From Halobiforma lacisalsi AJ5 (GTDB taxonomy: Archaea; Halobacteriota; Halobacteria; Halobacteriales; Natrialbaceae): a stretch of 64,000 nucleotides of DNA. Position numbers and translations under genes: made by a program. Positions 39,207 to 44,701 of the stretch are shown piece after piece; within the stretch, counting starts at the first letter, position 1; each line of letters begins with the position of its first letter. The stretch is from the NCBI RefSeq assembly GCF_000226975.2, contig NZ_CP019285.1, positions 3,968,001 to 4,032,000 of the forward strand, given 5' to 3'. Under the pieces are notes generated by a model. It did no database searches. It was not told the DNA's origin and saw only the letters and a program-made list of their open reading frames with translations.

Positions 39207-40376
39207 TCAGTCCCCGACCGACGGCGTCACGTCGGGGTCGGGTGCGGCATCTTCGTCATCCCACGGCAGCGGTCCGTCGTACCCCTCCGGGATGTGCGGG
39301 CAGAGCGGATCGCTCTCGAGCGGATTCCCGGTGTGAGCGTACGCACGGGAGCGGCTCCCGCCGCAGACGTGGCGGAACTCGCAGGCGCCGCACTTGCCCT
39401 CGAGTCGGTCGCGGTCCCGGAGCGACTCGAACAGCGGCGCGTTCCGGTAAATGTCGTGTACCGGGCGTTCGCGCACGTTGCCGGCCGATTCCGGGAGGAA
39501 GCCCGAGGGATAGACCTCCCCGGTGTGGCTCACGAACGCGAAGCCGTCGCCCGCGATGATCCCGGTGCGGCGCTGGATGCCGTCGTCGGCATTGCTCTCG
39601 CGGCTCGAGCGGCCGGGTTCCCCGTCGGTCTCCGCATCGCGCCCTCGGTCCCGATCCCGCTGGAGCGCCACGCGGCGGTAGTGGGGCGCTTCGGTCGTCT
39701 TGATTCCGAACGGCTCCTCGCGGTTGACCTCGTCGAGCCAGGCCATCACCGCGTCGGCCTCGTCGGGATCGATCGGCTCGAGGATCCGTCCGCGGCCGAC
39801 GGGGACCAGGAAGAAGACGCTCCACAGCACCGCGCCGATCTCCGTCAGCAGGTCGCGGATTTCGGGGAGGTCGCCGACGGTCTGACGACAGACGGTCGTG
39901 TTCACCTGGACGGGAAGCCCCGCCTCGCGGGCCTGTTCGACCGCCCGGATCGTTTCCTCGAAACTGCCGTCCTCGCCGCGAAAATCGTCGTGGCTCTCGG
40001 GTGTCGCGCCGTCGAGGCTGACCGCCATCCGCCTGAGGCCGGCGTCGGCCAGCGCCTCGATGCGCTCGGCGGTCAGCGAGTGGGTCCCGCTTGGGGTAAT
40101 CGTCATCCGGAGCCCAAGGTCGTCGCCGTAGGCGACGAGTTCCTCGACGTCGTCCCGGACGAGCGGGTCGCCGCCCGAGAGGACGACCAACTGCCCCTCG
40201 CCGAACTCGGCCGCGTCCTCGAGCAGCCGCTTGCCCTCCTCGGTCGTGAGTTCGTCGGGGTGGCGCTGGGACTGGGCGTCGGCCCGGCAGTGGTCACAGG
40301 CCAGTTCACAGGCCTGGCTGAGTTCCCAGATGAGCACGAACGGTCGGTCGGAGGTGTCGAGATTGCCGGGTCGCAT
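39207..40376 (-). CDS. Radical SAM/SPASM enzyme (AhbD/NirJ-like; TIGR04053-type)
   Basis: 389 residues from ATG 40376 (MRPGNLDTSDRPFVLIWELS). Radical SAM motif CELACDHCRAD (about 23-33), LSGGDP for SAM binding, VSLDGATPESHD. C-terminal SPASM-type cysteine region: GKCGACEFRHVCGGSRSRAYAHTGNPLESDPLCPHIPEGY, here only as landmarks. Relatives include AhbC/AhbD of heme synthesis, NirJ of heme d1 and peptide-modifying enzymes. An acidic/Arg insertion lies near 255-285. Located 104 bases after a CGCGG protein gene, which I recall as the partner family of this enzyme type, so peptide modification is the favoured role; heme side-chain chemistry is the main alternative. Confidence 0.82.
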   Translation of the reverse strand: MRPGNLDTSDRPFVLIWELSQACELACDHCRADAQSQRHPDELTTEEGKRLLEDAAEFGEGQLVVLSGGDPLVRDDVEELVAYGDDLGLRMTITPSGTHSLTAERIEALADAGLRRMAVSLDGATPESHDDFRGEDGSFEETIRAVEQAREAGLPVQVNTTVCRQTVGDLPEIRDLLTEIGAVLWSVFFLVPVGRGRILEPIDPDEADAVMAWLDEVNREEPFGIKTTEAPHYRRVALQRDRDRGRDAETDGEPGRSSRESNADDGIQRRTGIIAGDGFAFVSHTGEVYPSGFLPESAGNVRERPVHDIYRNAPLFESLRDRDRLEGKCGACEFRHVCGGSRSRAYAHTGNPLESDPLCPHIPEGYDGPLPWDDEDAAPDPDVTPSVGD

Positions 40377-40480
40377 TACTCGAGGGTTACGAGGACGCAA
40401 AGGAAAGGGACTCTCTCCTTCCCAGGGGTCGGGAAGACGGTGACATGTTCGTCGGCGGGCTGAAGGGGTGACACGGCCGG

Positions 40481-40816
40481 TTACTCCCCCACGTGGACGC
40501 GGGTGACGTGGCCACCGCAGCCACACTGGTCGACGTACTCGAGGCGGATTCGGGGCTCGGCGCCGTCCACATCGCCGTCGACCACCGGGAACGCCGCCTC
40601 GAGTTCCGGCCAGAGGTACGACTCGGGGTGGCCGTGGTCGCCGTGGGTCACCAGGTTGACGTGGTAGCCGTCGGCGGTCGCCTCGACCGCGTCCTTGGCC
40701 TGTTCGACGACCAGGTCTCGGTCGTCGGCGTGGACGGGCTTCTCGAGGTTCGCCGACCACGAGCACTCGTGGACGCGACGCGTCACTGGTTCGGCGCCGC
40801 TGACGTCTTCGCTCAT
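40481..40816 (-). CDS. CGCGG-motif small protein, candidate rSAM-modified RiPP precursor
   Basis: 111 residues. Core RRVHECSWSANLEKPVHADD, VNLVTHGDHGHPESYLWPELE and the C-terminal signature YVDQCGCGGHVTRVHVGE. The Cys-Gly-Cys-Gly-Gly stretch next to the C-terminus gives the name of a family I recall from NCBIfam as CGCGG family putative rSAM-modified RiPP. Six His and three Cys could also hold a metal or cluster. It is co-directional between the MoaD-like gene (52 bases) and the radical SAM gene (104 bases). No leader-peptide cleavage site such as GG before a core is obvious, so a modified whole protein is as likely as a released peptide. Confidence 0.75.
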   Translation of the reverse strand: MSEDVSGAEPVTRRVHECSWSANLEKPVHADDRDLVVEQAKDAVEATADGYHVNLVTHGDHGHPESYLWPELEAAFPVVDGDVDGAEPRIRLEYVDQCGCGGHVTRVHVGE

Positions 40817-40868
40817 GCGGCCACCTGCGGCCTCGAGCGGGGTAAGGGCTGAGACGAACGCGTTCGCC

Positions 40869-41294
40869 CTAGCAGCAAAACATGAAGGGGTAGATGAGCG
40901 CGACGCGGTCGCCGTCCTCGAGTTCGGACTCGAACCCGTCGTAGTGTTCGTTGAACCGGCCGTTGATGCAGACTCGGGCGTAGGTACGAGTCTGCTCGCC
41001 TTCGGGGTTCTTTCGCCACGTCCCCGGGAGTTCCTCCGGCGGCTCCGCCCACCCGTGGGCGGTTGCCTCGTCCTCGGTTTCGGCGATGAGCATGTCTTCG
41101 ACGTCGTACTCGTCGAAGAAGGCCTCGAGGAAGTCCCGGAGCCGGTCGCCCTCGAACGCGAACTCGAGGTCGTGGGTACCGACGGCCTCGCGGACGTGGC
41201 CGGTACAGCGGACCTCGACGGTGGTCGTGGCCTCGGTCGAACGGTCTGTATCGCTTTCGGATCCCGGCTCCTGGCTCGTTGCGTCGGCTGACAT
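40869..41294 (-). CDS. MoaD/ThiS-like beta-grasp protein ending in Phe-Cys-Cys
   Basis: 141 residues from ATG 41294. After an acidic, Ser/Thr-rich N-terminal 25 residues the beta-grasp follows (TTTVEVRCTGHVREAVG; FEGDRLRDFLEAFFDEYDV; RVCINGRFNEHYDGFESELEDGDRVALIYPF). MoaD, ThiS and SAMP proteins end in GlyGly, which is adenylated; here the terminus is MFCC with stop directly after. So normal thiocarboxylate or isopeptide chemistry is not expected; a terminal Cys pair could bind metal or act as a thiol/persulfide donor. An insertion (AETEDEATAHGWAEPPEELPGTWRKNPEGE) separates the strands. First gene of the operon with the CGCGG protein and radical SAM enzyme. Confidence 0.78.
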   Translation of the reverse strand: MSADATSQEPGSESDTDRSTEATTTVEVRCTGHVREAVGTHDLEFAFEGDRLRDFLEAFFDEYDVEDMLIAETEDEATAHGWAEPPEELPGTWRKNPEGEQTRTYARVCINGRFNEHYDGFESELEDGDRVALIYPFMFCC

Positions 41295-41331: not shown

Positions 41332-41345
41332 CCGAACACGTTCGG
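41332..41345. promoter_or_regulatory. Palindromic operator candidate in the divergent promoter region
   Basis: CCGAAC - AC - GTTCGG, perfect 6-base arms, with outer partly paired GTCCG (41326) and CGGAC (41343). It lies between the MoaD-like gene start and the divergent membrane protein start. Confidence 0.45.
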
Positions 41346-41382: not shown

Positions 41383-42795
41383 ATGAACCGGATACCCGGC
41401 GGACTACGGACCGACCAGCAGCCGCCGATGGCGATCCCGCTTCGACACTTCGTCCTCGCGCTCGCCTTCCTCGTCGCCGGGATCGTCGGCGCCACCGCGA
41501 TGACCGTCGAAACGCTGCCCGGACTGGCCGACATCGCCTCCGTCCACGCCCTCCTGCTTGGCTGGGTCGGGGTGACGATCATGGGCGCGATGACACAGTT
41601 CGTTCCCGTCTGGTCCGGCGTCACGATCCACTCGCGGCGGCTCGCCGTCACCCAGCTGTGGCTCGTCGTCGTCGGCCTGGTCGCGTTCGTCCCCATCCTG
41701 CTCGTCGGCGACCTCGCCTGGCTCCCTCTGGCCGCTGCGGCGCTGCTGGCCGGCATCTGGCTGTTCGTCTACAACGTCGGTCGCACGCTCCTCCGCGCCC
41801 GACCGCTCGAGTTCACGGAACGCCACTTCGCCGTCGCGCTCGTCTGCTTCGCCGCGGTCGCGCCGCTTGGATTCCTGCTCGCCGTCGATTTCACGACGCC
41901 GCTGCTCGAGGGCGTTCCGTTCGCCAGGGGTGAGGTCGTGCTCGCCCACGCGACGCTCGCGCTGTACGGAGCCGTAATCGGGACGATCATCGGCGCGCTG
42001 GTACAGCTCGGCCAGATGTTCGCCCAGTACGATCTCACGGCTCTCGACGATCGCCTGCTGGCCGTCGAACAGCCGCTCTTTCCGGCAGCGATCGTCGCGC
42101 TCTCGGTCGGGCGCGGGCTCGGCATCGAACCCCTCGCCCGTGTCGGCGGGGTCGCCCTTCTCGCCGCGCTGCTCGCCGTCGCGGTCGTCGTCGCCCGGAT
42201 CCTTGGCGGGTCGACCGCGGACCGCTCGCCGATGACAGACCGCTACTGGGTGGTCGTCGCCTCGCTGGTCGCCTGGAGCGTCGTCGCCTTTCCCGCGTGG
42301 TGGTCCGACCCGCTCGGGTACGCCGGCCTCTTCGGCCACCCCGACGCGACGAACCTGCTCGTGTTCGGCGTCTTCGCGTTCGTCGTCGTCGGCTCGCTGT
42401 ACCACATCGTTCCGTTCATCATCTGGCTCGAGGAGTACAGCGACCGGCTCGGCTTCGAACAGGTTCCGATGATCGACGACCTCTACGACGACCGCCTCGA
42501 GCGGGCCGACCTCGCCCTGACGCTCGTCGGCGTCGCCGCGATGGTCGCGACTCCGCTGGCGGACCTGCCCGGAATCGCCCTCACGGCCGGCGGGGCGGTG
42601 GCGACCGTCGGCTTCTGTCTGTTCGTCGCGAACATGCTGCTGACGATCCGCCGGCACAGTCCCGATGGCCTCGTCGGCGTGTTCACGACGCTCGAGGACG
42701 GGGAGTCAGGGGAGGAAAGCGAGCCGGGGCCGGACGTCGATATCGGGGCCGAGGGTTCGGCCGGGTCCGGTTCTGAACCCGAAGCCGGCCCCTGA
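41383..42795 (+). CDS. Heme-copper-oxidase-subunit-I-like / NnrS-like membrane protein
   Basis: 470 residues from ATG 41383 (MNRIPGGLRTDQQPPMAI). About 12 membrane helices. The helix motif ASVHALLLGWVGVTIMGAMTQFVPV matches the H-x2-LLGW-x-G pattern of cbb3 oxidase subunit I and NnrS proteins; other helix histidines are in VLAHATLALYG and SLYHIVPFIIWLEEYS. The full copper-B His set of respiratory oxidases is not evident, so it may bind heme without oxidase activity. Acidic C-terminal tail of about 40 residues. Ends two bases from the convergent related gene 42798-44042; divergent from the RiPP-like operon. Confidence 0.75.
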   Translation: MNRIPGGLRTDQQPPMAIPLRHFVLALAFLVAGIVGATAMTVETLPGLADIASVHALLLGWVGVTIMGAMTQFVPVWSGVTIHSRRLAVTQLWLVVVGLVAFVPILLVGDLAWLPLAAAALLAGIWLFVYNVGRTLLRARPLEFTERHFAVALVCFAAVAPLGFLLAVDFTTPLLEGVPFARGEVVLAHATLALYGAVIGTIIGALVQLGQMFAQYDLTALDDRLLAVEQPLFPAAIVALSVGRGLGIEPLARVGGVALLAALLAVAVVVARILGGSTADRSPMTDRYWVVVASLVAWSVVAFPAWWSDPLGYAGLFGHPDATNLLVFGVFAFVVVGSLYHIVPFIIWLEEYSDRLGFEQVPMIDDLYDDRLERADLALTLVGVAAMVATPLADLPGIALTAGGAVATVGFCLFVANMLLTIRRHSPDGLVGVFTTLEDGESGEESEPGPDVDIGAEGSAGSGSEPEAGP

Positions 42796-42797
42796 CG

Positions 42798-44042
42798 CTA
42801 TGTCAATCCCCGCTCCAGGAAGACCGTCCCGACGACGGTCGCGTACATGACCGCCCCGACCGTCGAGAGCGTCCGCCCGAGCGGCACCGCCAGTGCCAGC
42901 AACGTTCCCGACCCGCCGGCACCCAAGAGTAACCCACACGCCTCGAGAACGAGCCCGACGGCGAGCGCAGCCGCGGCGGCCCCCGCTGTCCGATCGTCGA
43001 CGAACCGGGAGGTGGCGATCCCGGGCGGGTAGAAGTAGTAGGTAACGCCGACGATAGTCAGCCCGAGGAAGCCGCCGACGGCGAGTCGGTAGTGGGCGTC
43101 GAACGCGGCCGCGCCCGAGCCGAGGGCCGGCCCGAGGGCGAACGAGAGCCCGAGCAACGCCGCGAGGACGGCGAAGGCGGCCGCGACGAGAACCGTCCGA
43201 CCCCCCACTCGGGGTCGATCGCTCCGACGGAACATGTCGCCGTACGCGGTCCCGAAGCCGGCGAGCGCGGTCGCCTGGAGCGTGGCTCCGGCGCGAAAGA
43301 GCCAGTCGCCGTGGAGGTCGGCCGCGAGCAGTGCCGGTCCCATCACTCCGGTCGCAAGCACCGTGACGACGAGCGGCCGCGAGGGCGAGACGACGAGCAG
43401 CCGCGGGAGGAGACGAAACCCGACCGCGAACACGAGCAGTGCCGCAGTTCCCGCCGCGAGCAAGTGCGTAACCCCCGGACCGGCCGGGACGAACGCTGGG
43501 AACCCGCCCTCGAGGCCGAGTACACCGACGAGCGCGAGCGACGAACCCGCGAGCAGGTACGCGAGCACGAACGGAACGGCAGCGTTGGCGATTCGGTCGA
43601 TGGGCCGTCGCTCAGCGTTCGCGCTGCCGGTGCCCGTTTCGTCCCCAGTGGGGTTATCACTGATCGTCCAGCCGAGCACGCCGACGAAGACGAGACAGCC
43701 GCCGAGCCAGAGAGTGAGTCCGGCAGCCTCGAGGACGGCCGGTCCGACGCCGGCGGCCCCGAGAAACGCCCCGACCGTTCCGAGCGCGGCAAGCGGCAGA
43801 TGAAGCACGGCTGCAGTCGGGACGGCGAGTTCGCGCGCGAAGTACGACGGGATCAGGGCGTAGGCTTTCCCGAAAACGACGTGGAGGACGAAGCCGTTGA
43901 CGCCGAGCACGACGGTCGCCGACCGGGGATACCCCGCCAGCGCGGCCAGGTGCCAGGCGACGAAGAAGCCGACGCCGGTCGCGACGAAGAGCCGCGACCA
44001 GCGGGTGACGGTCGCCGTCGCGGTGCCCGCTGGCGCACCCAT
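42798..44042 (-). CDS. Second HCO-I/NnrS-like membrane protein
   Basis: 414 residues, about 12 hydrophobic helices. Helix histidines recur with the same spacing as in its neighbour: VAWHLAALAGYP, NGFVLHVVFGKAYALIPSYF (H-x10-P), GVTHLLAAGTAALLVF and FDAHYRLAVGGFLGLTIVGVTYYFYPPG. The H...FG...P pattern is typical of NnrS and oxidase-like heme proteins. Three bases from the upstream gene 44046-44600, so the two form an operon. A disordered Gly/Thr/Asn loop lies near 130-145. Confidence 0.7.
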   Translation of the reverse strand: MGAPAGTATATVTRWSRLFVATGVGFFVAWHLAALAGYPRSATVVLGVNGFVLHVVFGKAYALIPSYFARELAVPTAAVLHLPLAALGTVGAFLGAAGVGPAVLEAAGLTLWLGGCLVFVGVLGWTISDNPTGDETGTGSANAERRPIDRIANAAVPFVLAYLLAGSSLALVGVLGLEGGFPAFVPAGPGVTHLLAAGTAALLVFAVGFRLLPRLLVVSPSRPLVVTVLATGVMGPALLAADLHGDWLFRAGATLQATALAGFGTAYGDMFRRSDRPRVGGRTVLVAAAFAVLAALLGLSFALGPALGSGAAAFDAHYRLAVGGFLGLTIVGVTYYFYPPGIATSRFVDDRTAGAAAAALAVGLVLEACGLLLGAGGSGTLLALAVPLGRTLSTVGAVMYATVVGTVFLERGLT

Positions 44043-44045
44043 CGG

Positions 44046-44600
44046 CTAGAACGGCGACTGCGTTCGCCGATCGCTCTCGTCGTCCCCGTCGGCAGACCGG
44101 TCCTTTCCGGGGATCTCGCCAGTCTCGAGGTACTCGGTCTCGAGTCGCTCGAGGGCCTCGTTGAGCCCCTCGGCCTGGTGGTGGGTCGGATCGACGCGCA
44201 CCCGGACCAGGTCGTACTCGTGGCGGTCGGACAGGCCGTTCCAGGCCCGGAACGATCCCTTCGTCAGGGCGTCGGCCTGCGGACAGAACTCCGTCGTCGG
44301 GGAGAACTCGGCCCGCAGCACCGACGGGTCGTCGGCGTCGACGGCATAGCGGTAGCCCGCCTCGGGGTGGCGGTGATCGAGGTTGAGCCGGGCGAGGTTG
44401 TAGCCGAACGTCGCGTCGTAGACGCCCCGCTCCTCGAACAGTTCCTCGGTCAGTTCGTGAAAGCCGACGTGATCCTCCTCGACGAGTACGTCGTGGCCCG
44501 CGAGGAACGGACCGGGATCCGGGAGGTGCTCGGGAACGAACTCGGACGCGTCGTCGAAGCCGTCGCCGTCCGCGTCGGCCCCTCTCGAGAACGGATTCAT
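44046..44600 (-). CDS. Conserved haloarchaeal protein of unknown function (DUF7998-like)
   Basis: 184 residues from ATG 44600 (MNPFSRGADADGDGFDDASEF); an upstream ATG (44648) would add an unlikely tail. Contains DGDGFDDAS (calcium-loop-like), VEEDHVGFHELTEELFEERGVYDATFGY, a single Cys in TTEFCPQADALTKGSFRAW, and HEYDLVRVRVDPTHHQ. The TTEFCPQADAL segment recalls MIP18/FeS-assembly-type proteins but with one Cys only. First gene of the two-gene operon with the NnrS-like protein, so a role in assembling or serving that membrane protein is inferred. Confidence 0.65.
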   Translation of the reverse strand: MNPFSRGADADGDGFDDASEFVPEHLPDPGPFLAGHDVLVEEDHVGFHELTEELFEERGVYDATFGYNLARLNLDHRHPEAGYRYAVDADDPSVLRAEFSPTTEFCPQADALTKGSFRAWNGLSDRHEYDLVRVRVDPTHHQAEGLNEALERLETEYLETGEIPGKDRSADGDDESDRRTQSPF

Positions 44601-44701
44601 CTCGGATCGAGATACGGTATCGACGGCCCAGTATCCCGTCCCGAACATGTACCCCAACTCTTGTTCTTCTCCTTCGACCCCGACGCGTGTCCCGTCCCCG
44701 G

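What the first reader, a model, noticed from the sequence alone, without database searches (positions are those of the whole stretch)
39207..41294. Operon of radical SAM/SPASM enzyme, CGCGG-motif protein and an FCC-ended beta-grasp protein: candidate peptide- or cofactor-modification system
Seen: three co-directional genes with short gaps; a full radical SAM motif and SPASM-type cysteines; a 111-residue protein with a C-terminal CGCGG stretch; a MoaD-like protein with a two-Cys end. Known: rSAM/SPASM enzymes often modify ribosomally made peptides, and the CGCGG family is, to my memory, named as a putative rSAM-modified product. Inference: the CGCGG protein is the substrate and the beta-grasp protein delivers sulfur, metal or acts as a recognition partner. 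The combination with NnrS-like membrane proteins next door suggests a heme, NO or copper task.
Basis: partly seen in the sequence, partly recalled or inferred. Interest (0 to 1): 0.8.

Follow-up and report, generated by a model that had tools for sequence, protein, structure and literature searches.

The report
Haloarchaeal denitrification-linked heme and carrier genes
In salt-loving archaea, a small protein that databases label a putative modified peptide (CGCGG) has in front of its gene the same short DNA box as genes for breathing nitrite and nitric oxide; it is predicted to be a folded helper that would carry a metal or sulfur cofactor, and the radical SAM enzyme beside it is likely the oxygen-free heme-making enzyme rather than a peptide modifier.

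Summary
The three genes are real: FCC, CGCGG, rSAM on the minus strand. The RiPP reading is not well supported. (1) The rSAM is TIGR04053 (499.6 bits); five of its next six models are heme or heme d1 enzymes, AhbD first, and it is sister to AhbD in two trees, with modest support. Its Haloferax counterpart, by synteny, is HVO_2144, whose deletion cuts anaerobic growth until protoheme is added (PMC5746218). (2) The CGCGG protein models as a folded domain (pLDDT 88). 18 of 205 CGCGG genomes lack TIGR04053, and 14 of 14 genomes of another archaeal family have TIGR04053 without CGCGG. (3) The denitrification box CGAA-N4-TTCG lies upstream of CGCGG in 66 of 80 loci (6 expected), and before CGCGG and FCC in the window. 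(4) 152 of 161 nirK genomes have CGCGG. FCC is a MoaD/ThiS-like protein ending in Cys-Cys, a feature noted in 2010 (PMC2948915). Proposal: an anaerobic-respiration module of heme synthase plus two Cys-ended carriers; what they carry is unknown.

The parts
39207..40376 (-). TIGR04053 radical SAM/SPASM protein (389 aa), likely the haloarchaeal anaerobic heme b synthase (AhbD role; HVO_2144 counterpart)
   Evidence: NCBIfam 499.6 bits vs cut-off 395; trees; synteny with the Haloferax nirK-norB cluster and knockout literature
40481..40816 (-). CGCGG protein (TIGR03995 / PF26005), 111 aa, predicted folded alpha/beta domain with CGCGG in a beta-hairpin turn
   Evidence: TIGR03995 123.7 bits vs cut-off 70; AF2 pLDDT 88, pTM 0.79; 57-sequence alignment
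40855..40866 (+). CGAACGCGTTCG: denitrification-type box CGAA-N4-TTCG, 38 bp before the CGCGG start codon
   Evidence: enrichment upstream of CGCGG genes in other loci
40869..41294 (-). FCC protein: MoaD/ThiS-like beta-grasp protein ending PFMFCC (fits the description of arCOG00539)
   Evidence: TIGR01687 36.4 bits, PF02597 20.5 bits, both below cut-off; profile weakly matches MoaD 2m19 and SAMP1-like 2l52, E 0.002-0.007; terminal FC invariant in 36 of 36
41333..41344 (+). CGAACACGTTCG: second box CGAA-N4-TTCG, 38 bp before the FCC start codon
41383..42795 (+). Divergent neighbour: COX1-like membrane protein (not NnrS), conserved near CGCGG genes
   Evidence: 10 of 12 aligned members match PF00115; near CGCGG in 33 of 80 loci
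42798..44042 (-). Conserved membrane protein of unknown family
   Evidence: near CGCGG in 21 of 80 loci; no Pfam family for this protein
44046..44657 (-). Conserved soluble protein of unknown family, near CGCGG genes elsewhere
   Evidence: near CGCGG in 36 of 80 loci; invariant CP and His residues

Best explanation
The FCC and CGCGG genes each carry, 38 bp before the start codon, the DNA box reported from haloarchaeal denitrification promoters, and the three genes likely form an anaerobic-respiration module in which the TIGR04053 enzyme would make heme b from Fe-coproporphyrin III and the two small proteins would act as Cys-ended carriers of a metal, heme or sulfur cofactor, not as peptide substrates. 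Shown here: families, gene order, boxes, co-occurrence with nirK and norB, and that CGCGG and TIGR04053 each occur without the other. Shown in print for the syntenic Haloferax gene: anaerobic heme requirement. Predicted: the CGCGG protein folds as a four-stranded TusA/SirA-like domain; if it follows the usual topology of that fold (recalled), the loops after strands 1, 2 and 3 meet at one edge, which would gather His28, His57, Cys97, Cys99 and His102 (53 to 57 of 57 sequences), with His60 and His62 (51 and 50 of 57), into one site. Inferred: this site binds a metal or persulfide for the assembly of the copper and heme enzymes made at low oxygen, and the FCC protein uses its terminal Cys pair, where MoaD uses Gly-Gly, in a related carrier role.
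Confidence: 0.56

Rival explanations
1. RiPP reading (NCBI label, first reader): TIGR04053 modifies the CGCGG stretch of the small protein, and the product is a peptide or a protein-borne cofactor.
For: NCBIfam names the family so; CGCGG occurs in 182 of the 208 genomes scored as holding TIGR04053 and lies within 10 kb of a TIGR04053 gene in 38 of 80 loci. The tree with TIGR04053 joined to PqqE and MftC is not rejected. Some of the 26 genomes with TIGR04053 but no CGCGG may hold only the second paralogue, which would make the pair tighter. Another rSAM-like gene, TIGR04347, with an intact CxxxCxxC in the five copies checked, could serve in some genomes without TIGR04053.
Against: 18 of 205 CGCGG genomes lack TIGR04053 (15 without any match at E <= 1e-20, 3 with only TIGR04347); the motif was found in 110 of 110 loci, including six from genomes without TIGR04053 over the cut-off (listed); 14 of 14 f15 genomes have TIGR04053 and no CGCGG, as does a Thermus plasmid locus. 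The protein is conserved from residue 15 to 105 and models as folded, without a leader and core. Genetics of the syntenic gene points to heme.
Confidence: 0.17
2. Sulfur relay: the CGCGG protein works like TusA and passes persulfide to the FCC protein or to a cofactor assembly enzyme, such as for the Mo cofactor of nitrate reductase.
For: TusA/SirA-like predicted fold; FCC is MoaD/ThiS-like; both genes have the same promoter box in the window.
Against: No CPxP Cys; FCC lacks the C-terminal Gly-Gly that an E1-like enzyme needs; CGCGG and FCC co-occur only loosely (phi 0.31); CGCGG tracks NirK and NorB, which need no Mo. Narrower than the best explanation and not excluded by it.
Confidence: 0.17
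3. Sensor or regulator: the Cys/His site of the CGCGG protein senses NO, copper or redox state and adjusts the denitrification enzymes.
For: In loci without an annotated rSAM gene the neighbours include multicopper oxidase, heavy metal P-type ATPase, cbb3/norB-type, ric and DUF2249 genes; the DUF2249 protein DrpA, with DrpB, is a proposed nitrate sensor in Thermus (PMC6282519, passages).
Against: No DNA-binding or signalling domain found; small soluble protein; no profile link to DUF2249.
Confidence: 0.13

Closest known systems
TIGR04053 family radical SAM/SPASM protein (HVO_2144, published as ahbD)
   Same: Same family and, in Haloferax, same gene order with nirK, norB and halocyanin
   Different: In the window it sits apart from nirK and norB, which lie elsewhere in the genome
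AhbD heme b synthase (TIGR04545)
   Same: Nearest family by model score and tree; shared CxxxCxxCR start and four SPASM-type Cys
   Different: Below the AhbD cut-off; five invariant AhbD Cys missing
CGCGG family putative rSAM-modified RiPP protein (TIGR03995 / PF26005)
   Same: Same family, above cut-off
   Different: Evidence here speaks against the function in the name; the window copy has about 10 extra residues before CGCGG
TusA / SirA / TsuB(YeeD) sulfur carriers
   Same: Predicted fold
   Different: No sequence relation found; CPxP Cys (recalled) absent, Cys pair in the strand 3-4 hairpin
MoaD/ThiS and SAMP1 ubiquitin-like proteins; arCOG00539
   Same: Beta-grasp family; the CC ending was noted for arCOG00539 in PMC2948915
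   Different: Ends in Cys-Cys (or Cys-Val) where MoaD, ThiS and SAMP1 end in Gly-Gly

Membership tests
TIGR04053 | Score above curated cut-off 395 | tested here: met
   499.6 bits
AhbD heme b synthase (TIGR04545) | Score above curated cut-off 500 | tested here: not met
   342.5 bits
AhbD heme b synthase (TIGR04545) | Cys columns invariant in AhbD | tested here: not met
   7 shared (3 rSAM + 4 SPASM-type), 5 further AhbD Cys absent in 14 of 14 TIGR04053 rows
AhbD heme b synthase (TIGR04545) | Groups with AhbD in a tree | tested here: inconclusive
   Sister, 95/92 and 83/89; alternative not rejected, p-AU 0.119
AhbD heme b synthase (TIGR04545) | Makes heme b from Fe-coproporphyrin III | not testable with these tools
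   Knockout of the syntenic HVO_2144 rescued by protoheme (PMC5746218, passages seen)
rSAM-modified RiPP (TIGR03995 label) | Score above family cut-off 70 | tested here: met
   123.7 bits
rSAM-modified RiPP (TIGR03995 label) | Always with its rSAM maturase (taken as TIGR04053) | tested here: not met
   18 of 205 genomes lack TIGR04053: 15 without a match at E <= 1e-20, 3 with only TIGR04347; 5 more have fragments or a weak partial match
rSAM-modified RiPP (TIGR03995 label) | Leader plus core peptide rather than one folded domain | tested here: not met
   Predicted folded domain, pLDDT 88; invariant residues from 15 to 105
rSAM-modified RiPP (TIGR03995 label) | Modified residues | not testable with these tools
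   Needs mass spectrometry
TusA/SirA | Beta-alpha-beta-alpha-beta-beta fold | tested here: inconclusive
TusA/SirA | CPxP cysteine at start of helix 1 (recalled) | tested here: not met
   Only Cys97 and Cys99 are invariant Cys in 57 sequences
MoaD/ThiS sulfur carrier | Beta-grasp domain | tested here: inconclusive
   PF02597 20.5 vs 22.5 and TIGR01687 36.4 vs 49.5 for this protein; precomputed PF02597 on many relatives
MoaD/ThiS sulfur carrier | C-terminal Gly-Gly | tested here: not met
   FCC in 33 of 36, FCV in 3 of 36
Haloarchaeal anaerobic (nirK-type) regulon | CGAA-N4-TTCG box in promoter | tested here: met
   Window boxes before FCC and CGCGG, 66 of 80 CGCGG loci
Haloarchaeal anaerobic (nirK-type) regulon | Induction under denitrifying conditions | not tested
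NnrS | PF05940 match in the neighbour 41383-42795 | tested here: not met
   0 families for this protein; 1 of 12 aligned members at 0.047, COX1 in 10 of 12

The most novel reading that the evidence does not exclude
The CGCGG family is a new kind of cofactor carrier: a TusA-like fold whose Cys/His site has moved to the strand 3-4 hairpin, working with a Cys-Cys-ended ubiquitin-like protein to load copper, heme or sulfur into the enzymes of low-oxygen respiration across haloarchaea; the RiPP label that the family carries in the databases is wrong.
Probability: 0.26. Interest if true: 0.72.

Novelty: new variant of a known kind. Interest (0 to 1): 0.5.

Why it matters
CGCGG proteins occur in about 70% of the haloarchaeal genomes sampled (205 of 292) and carry a RiPP label. 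If the label is wrong, genome mining for archaeal RiPPs counts false positives, and an accessory part of archaeal denitrification has been hidden behind the name. It also makes two questions directly testable in Haloferax volcanii: which protein helps load NirK and NorB, and how TIGR04053 makes heme with fewer Cys than AhbD.

Tried and rejected
NnrS for the neighbours: Pfam gives COX1 for 10 of 12 aligned members of the first and nothing for the window's second protein. DUF2249 as a sequence relative of CGCGG: hhalign probability 0.3%. PDB sequence search with the CGCGG profile: only chance-level hits. CGCGG outside haloarchaea: 0 of 85 other genomes of the phylum; all 33 plasmid records with it are haloarchaeal. 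Papers: a search for CGCGG with radical SAM gave 5 papers, none about this family judging from the listing; TIGR03995, TIGR04053, target_X_rSAM or 'CGCGG family' gave 0; the 2025 archaeal RiPP paper PMC12144867 does not name CGCGG in its main text (term search). Structure of the FCC protein: mean pLDDT 68 with weak middle and end, so not searched.

Corrections made on the way: in the window my gene caller chose the antisense frame of the rSAM gene and lost FCC, so I used homology instead. I first took 23 CGCGG genomes as free of TIGR04053; one search showed fragments or a weak partial match in 5 of them (G009, G107, G192, G201, G224), leaving 18. Matches near 1e-62 are TIGR04347 in five of five checked, not TIGR04053. 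The set of 208 TIGR04053 genomes was drawn by best E-value and is two larger than the tool's own 206. Six of the 205 CGCGG genomes are below the family cut-off.
Full report
WHAT IS THERE. The window is part of a haloarchaeal chromosome (G000, 4.38 Mb). On the minus strand, in the order of reading, are a 141-aa protein ending FCC (40869-41294), the 111-aa CGCGG protein (40481-40816) and a 389-aa radical SAM/SPASM protein (39207-40376). NCBIfam places the rSAM in TIGR04053 (499.6 bits, cut-off 395) and the small protein in TIGR03995, 'CGCGG family putative rSAM-modified RiPP protein' (123.7 bits, cut-off 70). The FCC protein matches MoaD models below cut-off.

THE rSAM ENZYME. After TIGR04053, the next six models are AhbD (342.5 bits), NirJ2 (232), the halo pseudo-SAM family TIGR04347 (219; function not known), AhbC (182), NirJ (172) and NirJ1 (168); PqqE (138) and mycofactocin MftC (136) come after these. 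In a tree of 43 chosen sequences TIGR04053 is sister to AhbD (95/92). After adding two PqqE, two MftC, one NirJ and one Thermus TIGR04053, and removing five long-branch rows, it is still sister, but with 83/89, and a tree forcing TIGR04053 with PqqE and MftC is not rejected (p-AU 0.119). Canonical AhbD (TIGR04545) is absent from 145 of 145 haloarchaea. In a sample of 100 genomes of the phylum (15 haloarchaea, 85 others), 22 pass the AhbD cut-off and 25 the TIGR04053 cut-off; apart from one borderline genome (G364, 395 bits, which scores 589 as AhbD) no genome passes both. All 14 genomes of family f15 in the sample have TIGR04053 and no AhbD over its cut-off. The two families therefore seem to replace each other.

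GENETICS IN PRINT. In a Haloferax massiliensis contig (L094) the order is nirK, DUF2249, TIGR04053, halocyanin, a 183-residue protein of no family, norB, CGCGG, halocyanin. PMC5746218 (passages seen) gives for H. volcanii nirK HVO_2141, ahbD HVO_2144, halocyanin HVO_2145, norB HVO_2147 and halocyanin HVO_2150, and reports that deletion of HVO_2144 strongly reduces anaerobic growth by denitrification and by DMSO respiration, restored by protoheme. By synteny HVO_2144 is the TIGR04053 gene; I did not fetch its sequence. PMC8305020 (passages) states that two-thirds of haloarchaea contain ahbD; TIGR04053 passes its cut-off in 206 of 292. In Thermus thermophilus the TIGR04053 gene adjoins a nitrite reductase gene. 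Against a plain AhbD label: five Cys invariant in six AhbD sequences are absent from all 14 TIGR04053 rows; the three rSAM Cys and four SPASM-type Cys are shared. So it likely works like AhbD, but is not a member of the AhbD model. The window's genome also has a second TIGR04053 member (436 bits), basal to the haloarchaeal clade, away from CGCGG and without the box.

THE CGCGG PROTEIN IS NOT STRICTLY TIED TO THE ENZYME. In the same 292 haloarchaeal genomes CGCGG is found in 205 (199 over cut-off), NirK in 161 (156 over cut-off), FCC in 185 and the NorB cytochrome domain in 162. CGCGG occurs with TIGR04053 in 182 of 205, in 152 of 161 NirK genomes, and with NirK or NorB in 182 of 205. By class: 170 of 176 genomes with TIGR04053 and NirK/NorB have CGCGG, 12 of 32 with TIGR04053 alone, 12 of 24 with NirK/NorB alone and 11 of 60 with neither. 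These counts are not corrected for kinship and mix the two TIGR04053 paralogues. Of 23 CGCGG genomes without a TIGR04053 over cut-off, 15 have no match at E <= 1e-20, 3 have only a TIGR04347 gene (G219, G238, G245; checked) and 5 show TIGR04053 fragments or a weak partial match. None of 85 other genomes of the phylum has CGCGG, though the 14 of family f15 have TIGR04053. The HVNLVTH...CGCGG pattern was found in 110 of 110 loci, including six from genomes without TIGR04053 over cut-off (listed).

NEIGHBOURS. In 80 named contigs (the best 80 of 152 confirmed by the scan), a TIGR04053 gene of at least 50% identity lies within 10 kb of CGCGG in 38. Other neighbours include the COX1-like protein in 33, the protein of the 44046-44657 family in 36 and FCC in 15, and nirK of at least 50% identity in 19 (counted from the listing, whose own tally of 21 includes two weak multicopper matches), norB in 11 and DUF2249 in 23. 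Annotated plasmids show CGCGG beside nirK and a cbb3/norB-type gene, a cbb3/norB-type gene and ric, nirK and halocyanin and a multicopper oxidase. In two Halorussus plasmids it has none of these neighbours.

THE PROMOTER BOX. PMC5746218 names CGAA-X4-TTCG as common to the denitrification genes and ahbD, and cites a reporter study in which it was essential for nirK transcription. PMC11218638 reports CGAAYATDKTYG in promoters of the H. mediterranei denitrification regions (passages). In the window five such sites occur where 3 are expected by chance, so the number says nothing; but two of them, 40855-40866 and 41333-41344, each lie 38 bp before the start codons of CGCGG and FCC. Across the 80 loci, 66 have a box within 350 bp upstream of the CGCGG match against 6.1 expected; windows of the same size elsewhere gave 1 to 21, the highest in the window next upstream. 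The rate is similar with TIGR04053 nearby (33 of 38) and without (33 of 42); in 30 unnamed loci 21 have it, and in 11 annotated plasmid loci 5. FCC genes have a box in 14 of 16, the COX1-like genes in 25 of 32, and TIGR04053 genes in 14 of 37; genes read in opposite directions can share one box. In the window the rSAM gene has no exact box of its own and may be read with CGCGG (inference). In the window's own genome boxes also lie near one of the two nirK genes and near norB.

THE FCC PROTEIN. The profile weakly matches MoaD 2m19 and SAMP1-like 2l52 (E 0.002 and 0.007), and many relatives carry a precomputed PF02597. The terminal FC is invariant in 36 of 36, CC in 33 and CV in 3. PMC2948915 (passages) noted in 2010 a haloarchaeal beta-grasp family, arCOG00539, with a CC end, so this feature is not new; I infer that FCC is that family from the description.

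VERDICT. The operon is likely an anaerobic-respiration module: a TIGR04053 heme synthase, and two small Cys-ended proteins under a denitrification-type box. The RiPP label for CGCGG is probably wrong (about 0.8 in my judgement); the carrier role is a proposal (about 0.4), and what it carries is open.

Noticed in passing
L115 4037-5577, Natrinema loci L032-L037, L189-L193: A second labelled 'rSAM-partnered candidate RiPP' (Htur_1727) and the 'pseudo-SAM' family TIGR04347 sit in such clusters; TIGR04347 groups with AhbC in the trees, and all five copies checked have an intact CxxxCxxC, so 'pseudo' may be a misnomer.
   Followed up: partly
L180 2513-3649 (G000 C1 about 1670012-1671148): A second TIGR04053 member in the window's genome (436 bits, over cut-off), basal to the haloarchaeal clade, beside a PdxS-like gene and without the box.
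   Followed up: partly
genomes G009, G192, G201, G224: TIGR04053 appears only as fragments, so the gene may be decaying or mis-sequenced there while CGCGG remains.
   Followed up: no
window 44046-44657: Conserved family without Pfam match, near CGCGG genes in 36 of 80 loci, with invariant TT.FCP and several His; a further unknown part of the same neighbourhood.
   Followed up: partly
plasmid record NZ_CP029056.1 (2,894 bp, labelled Campylobacter jejuni): Holds a TIGR04053 gene 47% identical to the window's; the short record may be a contaminant.
   Followed up: no
window 40481-40816: The window's CGCGG protein has about 10 extra residues before the last two strands compared with 19 aligned relatives.
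   Followed up: no
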